Shown one piece after another: positions 7,800-10,116 of a DNA stretch of 64,000 nt (positions within the stretch are counted from its first letter, which is position 1; each line of letters starts with the position of its first letter). Position numbers and translations under genes: made by a program. This DNA comes from Candidatus Siliceabacter maunaloa (lineage in GTDB: Bacteria > Actinomycetota > Thermoleophilia > Solirubrobacterales > Solirubrobacteraceae). The notes below the pieces were generated by a model. That model saw only the letters and a program-made list of their open reading frames with translations, did no database searches and was not told where the DNA came from. The DNA lies in NCBI GenBank assembly GCA_024330185.1, contig JANDLV010000013.1:1-64000 (forward strand). Reading direction: 5' to 3'.

Positions 7800-8411
7800 C
7801 TACCCGTCGGCGTCCTCGCCGCGCAGGCGCTCGATCACACGCTCGAAGACGTCGTGGGGTTGCGCGCCGGGCACGAGGACGCGGTCGTCGATGACCCAGG
7901 CCGGCACGCCGCCGCCGCCCGTCTCGTGCAGCGCGCGGGTCTGCGCCTCGAGGCGGTCGATGTACTGCTCGCCCGCCAGCACGTCGGCGATCTCGCCGGC
8001 GTCCAGGCCAACCGCTGCGGCCTCCTCGCGCAGCACCGCGGGGTCGCCGATGTCGCGGGCGCGGTGCCAGTAGGCGTCCATCACCCGGTGGTGCAGTTCG
8101 TCGTGGCGCCCGCGGTCGCGGGCCAGCTCGATGAGCTGCTGGGCGCGGCGGGAGTTGGGCACGTGGGTGATCTCGCGTGAGTAGGGCAGCCCGGCGGCGT
8201 CGAACATGGCGTAGATGCGGTCGCGCCAGGCTCTGCCGCCGTAGCGCCGGTCGAGCTCCTCGGTGGAGATGCCCTGAGGCGGATACTCGGGATGCAGGTC
8301 GAAGGGCAGCCACTCGATCGTCGCGCCGAACCGGCGCTGAAGCCACGCGGCCCGCTCGAGGCCGACGTAGCAGAAGGGTCATATGGGGTCGGACCAGACG
8401 CGGATGAGCAT
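7800..8411 (-). CDS. DsbA/FrnE-like oxidoreductase, probable selenoprotein (UPFC active site)
   Basis: The gene reads from ATG at 8411 to a stop at 7800 only if the TGA at 8381-8379 is translated. The start gives MLIRVWSDPI, then TGA, then PFCYVGLERAAWL. FrnE/DsbA-family thioredoxin-fold proteins have a CPxC-type active site at exactly this place, so the TGA replaces the first, nucleophilic cysteine (U11-P-F-C14). Downstream the protein is intact for 190 residues, including the family's EWLPFDLHPEYP segment and a cis-proline loop (GGVPAWVIDD). A candidate SECIS hairpin follows the TGA. Total length is about 203 residues. The gene starts 3 nt after the yedK-like stop, so the two are co-transcribed. 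The alternative, a disabled gene, is less likely given the precise codon position and intact flanks. Confidence 0.82.
8343..8370 (-). promoter_or_regulatory. Candidate SECIS element of the DsbA-like selenoprotein
   Basis: In the mRNA, beginning 8 nt after the UGA, a 28-nt segment folds as CUACG pairing with CGUGG, a single bulged U, then CGGCC pairing with GGCCG around the loop UCGAGCG. The apical loop is about 19-25 nt after the UGA. A U bulge and an apical loop at this distance resemble bacterial SECIS elements such as fdhF. If the U-G pair closing the loop forms, a G falls within the first two loop positions. Hand-folded only. Confidence 0.55.
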
Positions 8412-8414
8412 GGC

Positions 8415-9083
8415 TCAGAAGAGGGTTGGTTGCTGGTCTGTTGCCTGCGGCTCGAGGAGATGCTTGCCCTCGGTGCCGGCCTTGTTCGTCTCCGTGCTCG
8501 CTGGCCGGCTGCGCATGCGAACGGCATCGAGTGAGGAGAGGAGGGAGGGGAGCTCCTCGGGGATTAGGTCGTCCTCGAGCCATGCTCTCTCGGCTCCCTG
8601 GTCTTGGAGGATGACCGGCATGCGGTCGTGCAGGCGGGCGACGAGCTCGTTGGGCGCCGTGGTGAGGATCGTGGCGGCCTCCCCGTCCCACAGGCCGGCG
8701 AAGACGAAGGGTTCGCGGTCGGCGAGGGTGAAGTGGAAGGGCCGGCGCGGTTGGCGGCCCTCCTCCGCGCGCAGCCACTCGTAGAAGCCGTCGGCCGGGA
8801 TCAGGCAGCGGCTCGCGGGCTCGCTCACCAGCCTGGCGAAGGGGTGGCGGCCAGCGACGGTCTCCGACCGCGCGTTGATCAGCGGCCCGCCGCGCCTCCA
8901 CGGCGGCTCGATGCCCCAGCGCACGGCGTGGGCGCTGCGCGCGCCGGGCTCCTGCGCCGCGACGATCGCGATCGTCTCGGTCGGCGCGACGTTGTAGCGC
9001 CCCAGAGCCACGCCCGGCAGCCGCGCGCCGAAGCGATCGTCGATCTCGCCGGGACCGCTGGTGAGGGTGTAGCGCCCGCACAT
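8415..9083 (-). CDS. yedK: SOS response-associated peptidase (YedK/HMCES, SRAP)
   Basis: This 222-residue protein belongs to the SRAP family, which crosslinks covalently through Cys2 to abasic sites in single-stranded DNA. The start is fixed by the required MCGRYTL N-terminus; the frame is open further upstream but Cys must follow the initiator Met. Other family elements are YNVAPTE, RWGIEPPW, NARSET, PADGFYEW (active-site Glu) and HDRMPVIL (active-site His). The gene is directly followed by the selenocysteine DsbA-like gene with a 3-nt gap. Confidence 0.93.
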   Translation of the reverse strand: MCGRYTLTSGPGEIDDRFGARLPGVALGRYNVAPTETIAIVAAQEPGARSAHAVRWGIEPPWRRGGPLINARSETVAGRHPFARLVSEPASRCLIPADGFYEWLRAEEGRQPRRPFHFTLADREPFVFAGLWDGEAATILTTAPNELVARLHDRMPVILQDQGAERAWLEDDLIPEELPSLLSSLDAVRMRSRPASTETNKAGTEGKHLLEPQATDQQPTLF

Positions 9084-9165
9084 GGTGCAGAGAGGATGGC
9101 GTTTCGACGCAGTTGTGTCCCAGACCACGTGTCACACGCGCGTTTTCGCTCGGCAGGCTGGCGTC

Positions 9166-10116
9166 ATGAGCACCGCTTGGCGAATCACCCCCGCTCTGCG
9201 GGGGCAGAACGCCAACCGGCAGATCGTGGCGGTCGCGGAGGCCCAGCACGCGATGATCCACCGGTCGCAGCTGCTGGCCATCGGGCTTGGCTCCAACGCC
9301 ATCGACCGGCGCATCGCGATCGGGGGGCTGCACGTGATGTACCCCGGCGTCTACGCCCTCGGCCATCGGGTGGTGACGCTGAAGGGCCGGTGGATGGCCG
9401 CGGTCCTGGCGTGCGGCCCGGCCGCGAAGCTGAGCCATCGCGATGGGGCGGCACTGGTAGGCCTGCGACCAGCGAGCGGCTCGCTGTACGAGGTCACGGT
9501 GCCCGGCGGCAGGGGACGCGGCCTGAAGGGCATCCGTGTCCACCGCAGCGTCCTGGCGCCCGACGAGGTCACGGTCATCGACGCCATCTCCACCACGACC
9601 TGGGCGCGCACGCTGATCGACCTCGCCGCTCTCCTCCCCCCTCACCAGCTCGCCCGCGCCCTCGAGCAGGCCGAGATCCTGCGGATCTTCGACCTCAACG
9701 CTCTGCAACCGCTGCTGGACCGCCACGCACGCCGCCCCGGCGTGCCGGCCCTCAACCGAGCCCTCGAAGAACACCGACCCGAGACCCACCGCACCCGCAA
9801 CGACCTCGAGGAGCTCCTGGTCCACCTCTGCCGCCAGGCCGACCTTCCCCTCCCGACCGCGCTCAATGCCTCGCTCGACCTGCCGGGAGTCGGGCGGATC
9901 GAGCCCGACGCCATCTGGCGCGAACACAAGGTCATCGTCGAGGTCGACGGCTTCGAGACCCACGGCACCCGAGCGATGTTCGAGTCCGACCGCGTCCGCG
10001 ACGCCGAGCTCCAGATCCTCGGCTGGCGCGTCCTGCGCACCACCTGGCTCCAGCTCGAGCGAGCGCCCCACGAGTTCCTCGACCGCCTGCGCCGCCTCCT
10101 GCGCACCGCCGGGTGA
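9166..10116 (+). CDS. DUF559 protein with AbiEi-antitoxin-like N-terminus
   Basis: This 316-residue protein has an N-terminal helical region with a wing-like segment (MIHRSQLLAIGLGSNAIDRRIAIGGL...YPGVYALG), typical of AbiEi-type antitoxin domains. The C-terminus is a restriction-endonuclease-like fold: RIEPDAIWREHKVIVEVDG and LQILGWRVLRTTW resemble the D-ExK core of DUF559, with Asp in EPDAIW and Glu in VIVEVDG. Such proteins are common in high-GC actinobacteria, usually without a partner toxin. The ATG at 9166 is chosen over the upstream in-frame Met because it starts the conserved region. It transcribes divergently from yedK. Confidence 0.8.
   Translation: MSTAWRITPALRGQNANRQIVAVAEAQHAMIHRSQLLAIGLGSNAIDRRIAIGGLHVMYPGVYALGHRVVTLKGRWMAAVLACGPAAKLSHRDGAALVGLRPASGSLYEVTVPGGRGRGLKGIRVHRSVLAPDEVTVIDAISTTTWARTLIDLAALLPPHQLARALEQAEILRIFDLNALQPLLDRHARRPGVPALNRALEEHRPETHRTRNDLEELLVHLCRQADLPLPTALNASLDLPGVGRIEPDAIWREHKVIVEVDGFETHGTRAMFESDRVRDAELQILGWRVLRTTWLQLERAPHEFLDRLRRLLRTAG

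What the first reader, a model, noticed from the sequence alone, without database searches (positions are those of the whole stretch)
7800..8411. Selenocysteine at the active site of a DsbA/FrnE-like oxidoreductase
The TGA at 8381-8379 sits at the first position of the CxxC-type motif, with intact coding on both sides and a foldable hairpin with a bulged U directly downstream. An automatic annotation would start this gene at an internal Met (8207) and lose the catalytic site. Sec at the nucleophilic position should raise reactivity. The coupling to a YedK/HMCES-type abasic-site crosslinking protein (3-nt gap) raises the question of an oxidative or DNA-damage context.
Basis: partly seen in the sequence, partly recalled or inferred. 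Interest (0 to 1): 0.75.

Follow-up and report, generated by a model that had tools for sequence, protein, structure and literature searches.

The report
Selenocysteine-containing FrnE-type redox protein gene
A gene that standard annotation would cut short almost certainly encodes a selenium-containing redox enzyme of the known FrnE/DsbA type, and the same stop-like selenocysteine codon is shared by relatives in other, mostly uncultured, actinobacteria.

Summary
An in-frame TGA (8381-8379, minus strand) lies inside one open frame (7800-8411), exactly at the first catalytic position of a DsbA/FrnE fold (U11-P-F-C14). It is not a sequencing error. Of 39 homologue loci in which the codon could be read, 25 have TGA and 14 have TGC/TGT; none has anything else. 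The window's genome encodes selA, selB, selD and a tRNA-Sec with anticodon UCA. It also holds a second in-frame TGA, at the Sec site of a GrdB-like protein. TGA tracks the machinery: selA is found in 20 of 25 TGA genomes against 2 of 14 Cys genomes. The hairpin behind the TGA is more stable than codon choice predicts in Sec genes, but not in Cys genes. The predicted structure superposes on Deinococcus FrnE over all 203 residues. So Sec at the active site is supported, with only Se chemistry left unproven. The link to the HMCES/SRAP gene is not: that neighbour was found in no other locus. UxxC DsbA/FrnE (COG2761) selenoproteins have been in print since 2005, so this is a new member of a known kind. 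New here are a Thermoleophilia-centred Sec clade and a genome with Sec machinery in which neither a Sec-FdhA nor a Sec-SelD was found.

The parts
7800..8411 (-). Sec-FrnE gene, 203 aa, cytosolic DsbA/FrnE-type oxidoreductase; ATG 8411-8409, stop TAG 7802-7800
8379..8381 (-). TGA read as selenocysteine, residue 11, first position of the UPFC motif
8370..8372 (-). TGC, Cys14, the resolving (second) residue of the motif; the only Cys codon in the gene
8342..8371 (-). predicted SECIS hairpin, bulged U at 8365, apical loop 8358-8354 (CGAGC), 20 nt between TGA and loop
8415..9083 (-). SRAP (HMCES/YedK-type) gene directly upstream, stop TGA; a neighbour only, not conserved beside Sec-FrnE elsewhere

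Best explanation
The gene encodes a cytosolic selenoprotein of the FrnE/DsbA type. SelB with Sec-tRNA(UCA) and the hairpin just downstream decode the TGA at codon 11 as selenocysteine. The selenolate at position 11 would be the attacking nucleophile at the start of helix 1, and Cys14 would resolve the mixed selenenylsulfide. This works as in CxxC FrnE, but with a more acidic nucleophile that is easier to recycle. The protein most likely reduces or isomerises disulfides in the cytosol. Shown here: the frame, the position of the TGA, its conservation, the machinery, a second selenoprotein site in the same genome, and the fold (as a confident model). Inferred: actual Sec insertion, which substrate it acts on, what regenerates it, and the reducing direction.
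For: In-frame TGA at the catalytic position. 25 of 39 readable homologue loci have TGA and 14 have TGC/TGT, no other codon. Machinery in the same genome: selB 273.7 bits over a cut-off of 242.25, selA 474 bits, selD 371 bits, tRNA-Sec 65.5 bits over 47 with anticodon tca. Second in-frame TGA at a GrdB-like Sec site in the same genome. selA in 20 of 25 TGA genomes against 2 of 14 Cys genomes, Fisher p 1.2e-4; selB the same. The hairpin is more stable than synonymous recodings in 26 Sec genes (mean z -1.52) but not in 14 Cys genes (mean z -0.19), Mann-Whitney p 2.7e-5. TGA is a true stop in 6 of 10 clear genes of the window, including the SRAP gene just upstream, so it is not reassigned genome-wide. 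AlphaFold2 pLDDT 96.2, pTM 0.91; Z 26.6 to D. radiodurans FrnE over 203 residues.
Against: The published bacterial SECIS rule is met by the window, but also by 58% of synonymous recodings of the Sec genes (4538 of 7800), and only 17 of 26 Sec genes meet it by minimum-energy folding. For the window alone the excess stability is weak (z -2.05, p 0.05). Five of 25 TGA genomes show neither selA nor selB, though all these loci come from MAG records and two of the five have a tRNA-Sec above the gathering score. tRNA-Sec presence over the gathering score does not separate the groups (16 of 25 against 8 of 14). Sec and Cys genes are mostly separate clades, so the group tests have few independent contrasts.
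Confidence: 0.93

Rival explanations
1. Pseudogene or point mutation: a Cys codon TGC/TGT has become a stop and the gene is dying; a shorter product may start at Met 8207.
For: A single TGA would look like this in any one genome; the mechanical ORF starts at 8207.
Against: The same TGA stands in 25 of 39 readable homologue loci. Both sides stay coding: between the TGA and Met 8207, 19 of 31 differences to the genus mate are at third codon positions. The start at 8207 would lose the first strand and both catalytic residues.
Confidence: 0.02
2. Sequencing or assembly error in a metagenome bin.
For: The window's genome is a draft of 120 contigs.
Against: 25 other loci carry the same TGA, among them the genus mate at 73% identity.
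Confidence: 0.01
3. Readthrough of TGA as another residue (Trp, or a Cys by a suppressor tRNA) without selenium.
For: No chemistry was tested.
Against: TGA ends 6 of 10 clear genes in the window. SelA/SelB presence follows TGA. Homologues without TGA show Cys and never Trp at this column.
Confidence: 0.04
4. The gene works with the SRAP (HMCES) gene in abasic-site or oxidative DNA damage repair.
For: 3-nt gap and same strand in the window; FrnE of D. radiodurans is induced by gamma rays and desiccation (PMC8945050, passages seen).
Against: No SRAP match in any of 40 other loci (L020-L059), 38 of which hold at least 700 bases upstream; in the genus mate only the SNF2-type helicase of the window's upstream genes was found.
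Confidence: 0.05

Closest known systems
DsbA-like selenoprotein, UxxC (COG2761 / PF01323; Sargasso Sea 2005, 'DsbA 1' of GOS 2008, 'DsbA-like form 1' of the 2026 review)
   Same: Same Pfam family and same UxxC site with Sec at the first position. COG2761 is the FrnE group (name recalled).
   Different: The published sequences were not held, so identity of subfamily is untested. In the passages seen, the sources named are marine metagenomes, Deltaproteobacteria and Clostridia; here a clade of mostly actinobacterial MAGs, several titled Thermoleophilia or Solirubrobacterales.
DsbA-like form 2, motif DxxUP (PF01323, 2026 review)
   Same: Motif D-x-x-U-P is present here as D8-P-I-U11-P12.
   Different: That entry is listed by motif DxxUP and as a crotonase family protein; ours is a single-domain protein with UxxC. 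Sequence not held.
FrnE of Deinococcus radiodurans (DR_0659, PDB 5cnw) and SCO1869 (3gl5)
   Same: Fold over the full length, Z 26.6 and 26.0; sequence E 3.9e-16 and 1.6e-18.
   Different: They use CxxC; drFrnE also has a C-terminal CX4C for regeneration (PMC8945050 passages), which this protein lacks (one Cys codon only).
Cytosolic DsbM, HCCA isomerase, kappa GST
   Same: Same fold class, Z about 20.
   Different: At most 20% identity; the HCCA isomerase and kappa GST active-site residue is Ser rather than Cys/Sec (recalled, not tested).

Membership tests
Bacterial selenoprotein | In-frame UGA aligned with Cys of homologues at a redox site | tested here: met
   column 11 is Sec or Cys in 50 of 50 aligned rows
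Bacterial selenoprotein | selA, selB, selC (UCA), selD in the genome | tested here: met
Bacterial selenoprotein | SECIS hairpin downstream of UGA (loop 3-9 nt, G in first two loop positions, 16-37 nt spacing, energy at or below -7.5) | tested here: inconclusive
   Met by the window (loop CGAGC, 20 nt, -16.4 kcal/mol) but also by 4538 of 7800 synonymous recodings of the Sec genes (rule from PMC13188914). Excess stability in Sec versus Cys genes supports it.
Bacterial selenoprotein | Selenium in the protein | not testable with these tools
   needs mass spectrometry or 75Se
FrnE / DsbA family | DsbA-like thioredoxin fold (PF01323) | tested here: met
FrnE / DsbA family | CxxC (here UxxC) at the start of helix 1 and a conserved Pro opposite | tested here: met
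   D8, residue 11, P12, C14, P170 invariant in 50 of 50; helix 12-28. The cis state of P170 was not measured.
FrnE (D. radiodurans type) | C-terminal CX4C motif | tested here: not met
   one Cys codon in the gene; the motif is absent in some FrnE too
FrnE subfamily cd03024 | CDD domain assignment | not testable with these tools
   CDD is not on hand
DsbA-like form 1 selenoprotein of the literature | UxxC motif and PF01323 | tested here: met
DsbA-like form 1 selenoprotein of the literature | Sequence clade with the published members | not tested
   no call looked up the published accessions; the tools offer no look-up of a protein accession

The most novel reading that the evidence does not exclude
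A distinct, cytosolic Sec-FrnE subfamily is old in Thermoleophilia-like Actinomycetota, where Sec and Cys forms split into clades and Sec may have been swapped back to Cys (L039). In the window's organism it is one of very few selenoproteins that keep the whole Sec apparatus alive, without Sec in FdhA or SelD. That would go against the 2006 statement that every selenoproteome has one of those two.
Probability: 0.35. Interest if true: 0.55.

Novelty: new member of a known kind. Interest (0 to 1): 0.4.

Why it matters
The mechanical ORF call (and so, probably, standard gene callers) starts this gene at an internal Met, which removes the active site. No curated NCBIfam model reached its cut-off for it, so this clade is probably mis-annotated widely. 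It extends the UxxC DsbA/FrnE selenoproteins to a set of mostly uncultured actinobacteria. It also offers a natural Sec-versus-Cys comparison in one clade: 26 Sec and 14 Cys forms of one small soluble enzyme that can be expressed and assayed.

Tried and rejected
DNA-damage operon: rejected, because the SRAP neighbour is not conserved. Conserved neighbours in general: an all-frames ORF clustering of the loci was swamped by shadow frames, its output was cut, and no operon partner was drawn from it; left unresolved.

SECIS by rule: the published bacterial rule was applied and dropped as evidence, because more than half of synonymous recodings pass; 7 of 14 Cys genes pass too.

FdhA as the reason for the Sec machinery: none over the cut-off in the window's genome. 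The best match is a nitrate-reductase-like molybdoenzyme without an in-frame stop (name by my reading). SelD has Cys, not Sec, in its GCGCK stretch (that this is the usual Sec site is recalled). The genome is 95.43% complete and its genus mate has an FdhA match with an in-frame TGA, so absence may be incompleteness.

First tree: 7 of its 14 outgroup rows were taken from the wrong strand; it was discarded and redone with 20 correctly oriented rows.

Direction of Sec/Cys change: two changes on the tree; gain or loss at the base is not decided, and the branch that places L039 among the Sec forms has modest support (87/94 and 84/79).

Literature: FrnE with selenocysteine gave no relevant paper among 5 listed; Thermoleophilia with selenocysteine gave 3 papers, none on this by title and start of abstract; searches gave no paper on this clade. 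Absence in print is claimed only for those searches.

Full report
What is there. The minus-strand frame 7800-8411 is open from ATG 8411 to TAG 7800 except for one TGA at codon 11 (8381-8379). Read through, the product is 203 aa and matches the DSBA family of Pfam at 104.8 bits over residues 3-193. The motif is U11-P12-F13-C14. The mechanical ORF list begins the gene at ATG 8207 (135 aa), which would remove the first strand and the whole active site.

Is the TGA shared? A scan of one genome per species gave 41 loci. The codon could be read in 39 (L020-L058); L059 and L060 lack the N-terminus and were left out. It is TGA in 25, TGC or TGT in 14, and nothing else. Among 61 genomes (the window's own and 60 relatives), 31 have some match. 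Only the window and its genus mate have the close form, both with one TGA; no other match in that list has a stop inside.

Coding on both sides. Against the genus mate, codons 12-68 (TGA to the internal Met) differ at 7, 5 and 19 first, second and third positions. Codons 69-195 differ at 16, 19 and 50, the same pattern. The first ten codons have too few differences to judge (2, 3, 3). TGA is an ordinary stop in 6 of 10 clear genes of the window, among them the SRAP gene that ends 33 nt upstream. So one region holds a TGA read as stop and one read through.

Machinery. In the window's own genome (3.79 Mb, 120 contigs, 95.43% complete) lie selB (273.7 bits, cut-off 242.25), selA next to it (474 bits), selD (371 bits) and a tRNA-Sec gene (65.5 bits, gathering score 47) with anticodon UCA. 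A second selenoprotein site exists in this genome. A GrdB-like gene at C24:64480 matches TIGR01918 at 431 bits (cut-off 65.45) and carries an in-frame TGA in VILTAT-U-GTGTRCG, with coding continuing behind it. The genus mate has the same family with one TGA inside.

Does TGA follow the machinery? Counting the genomes behind the 39 readable loci, selA is found in 20 of 25 TGA genomes (19 of 25 over the cut-off) and 2 of 14 Cys genomes (Fisher p 1.2e-4). selB is found in 20 of 25 and 2 of 14. Against this, tRNA-Sec over the gathering score does not separate the groups (16 of 25, 8 of 14; at 55 bits or more 10 of 25 and 1 of 14, p 0.06; the 55-bit level was set after seeing the scores). Five TGA genomes have neither selA nor selB. 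Two of those have a tRNA-Sec over the gathering score, and three of the five have a weak GrdB-type match with TGA inside (G067, G069, G083). All 39 records are titled as MAGs, so absence is weak evidence.

The hairpin. In the window, pairs lie within 8371-8342 with a bulged U at 8365 and loop CGAGC. I compared the 42 nt after codon 11 of each gene with 1000 synonymous recodings. The 26 Sec genes have mean z -1.52 and the 14 Cys genes -0.19 (Mann-Whitney p 2.7e-5; window z -2.05, p 0.05). The lower stem is kept in Sec genes and mostly lost in Cys genes: pair 11-38 in 25 of 26 against 2 of 14, pair 12-37 in 22 of 26 against 2 of 14 (positions count from the T of codon 11 as 0). Other pairs of the same register do not separate the groups, for instance 10-39 with 22 of 26 against 14 of 14. 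Related sequences are not independent, and the published rule for bacterial SECIS does not discriminate at this G+C (met by 17 of 26 Sec genes, 7 of 14 Cys genes and 4538 of 7800 synonymous recodings of the Sec genes, rule from the figure legend of PMC13188914, section read).

Family and history. A tree of 60 proteins (26 Sec, 14 Cys, 20 CxxC FrnE-like proteins from the window's own taxonomic family) puts the 40 in one clade at 100/100, apart from the FrnE-like proteins. Two changes explain Sec and Cys in it; a Cys form (L039), whose genome still has selA and selB, is placed within the Sec side with modest support. Columns D8, 11, P12, C14 and P170 are invariant in 50 of 50 aligned rows (50 of the 60 tree rows were given to that call).

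Structure. The AlphaFold2 model (50 sequences, U given as C) has pLDDT 96.2 and pTM 0.91. The best solved structures are D. radiodurans FrnE (5cnw, Z 26.6, 2.2 A, 203 residues, 27% identity) and SCO1869 (3gl5, Z 26.0). By sequence, the same two proteins are the only ones found. The protein begins directly with the first strand, so it looks cytosolic (inspection). It has no Cys other than Cys14, so it lacks the CX4C that drFrnE is proposed to use for regeneration; another reductant must serve (inference).

Neighbourhood. The upstream gene is an SRAP protein, but no SRAP match occurs in 40 other loci, 38 of which hold 700 bases or more upstream. In the genus mate only the SNF2-type helicase of the window's upstream genes was found. 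The 3-nt coupling is thus local to this genome as far as tested.

What is known. UxxC DsbA-like selenoproteins were described in 2005 (9 sequences, COG2761; PMC1088965 passages), as DsbA 1-3 in 2008 (63, 18 and 5 sequences, the third with UxxV; PMC2398784 passages) and in 41 organisms in 2016 (PMC5029168 passages). The 2026 review lists two DsbA-like forms, UxxC and DxxUP (PMC13188914, section 7 part 1 read); this protein fits both motifs. No NCBIfam model reaches its cut-off. So the kind is known; the clade and the missed annotation are the new part. A 2006 paper states that FdhA or SelD was in every selenoproteome (PMC1794560 passages). Here SelD has Cys and no FdhA over the cut-off was found, while 12 of 28 genomes searched behind the related loci have an FdhA match at E 1e-40 or better, each with a TGA inside. 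With a 95% complete draft this is a lead, not a finding.

Noticed in passing
G000:C24 from 64480 (L096:1501-2796): A second selenoprotein gene, GrdB-like (TIGR01918), with an in-frame TGA; what it does in this actinobacterium is open.
   Followed up: partly
G000:C46:15792-16751 (L010:1489-2535) and G000:C53:11399-13528: SelD of this genome has Cys instead of Sec, and no FdhA over the cut-off was found, so neither of the two usual selenoproteins was found here.
   Followed up: partly
L049, L056 (titled Bifidobacterium breve) and L030 (titled Chloroflexi): These MAG records carry homologues that sit inside the actinobacterial clade of the tree, away from what their titles suggest; the titles look wrong.
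   Followed up: no
window 9082-10116: Gene with weak matches to REase_MTES_1575 / DUF559 nuclease-like domains, its start overlapping the SRAP gene start on the other strand; SRAP and this gene lie between Sec-FrnE and the helicase and were not matched in the genus mate's locus.
   Followed up: no
L009:2760-3407 (G000:C35): A protein that looks like a MoaD/MoaE (molybdopterin synthase) fusion lies next to selA-selB (name by inspection only).
   Followed up: no
G066, G067, G069, G071, G076, G078, G083, G085: Weak matches to the GrdB family, each with a TGA inside, point to a second, shorter GrdB/PrdB-type selenoprotein in these genomes.
   Followed up: no
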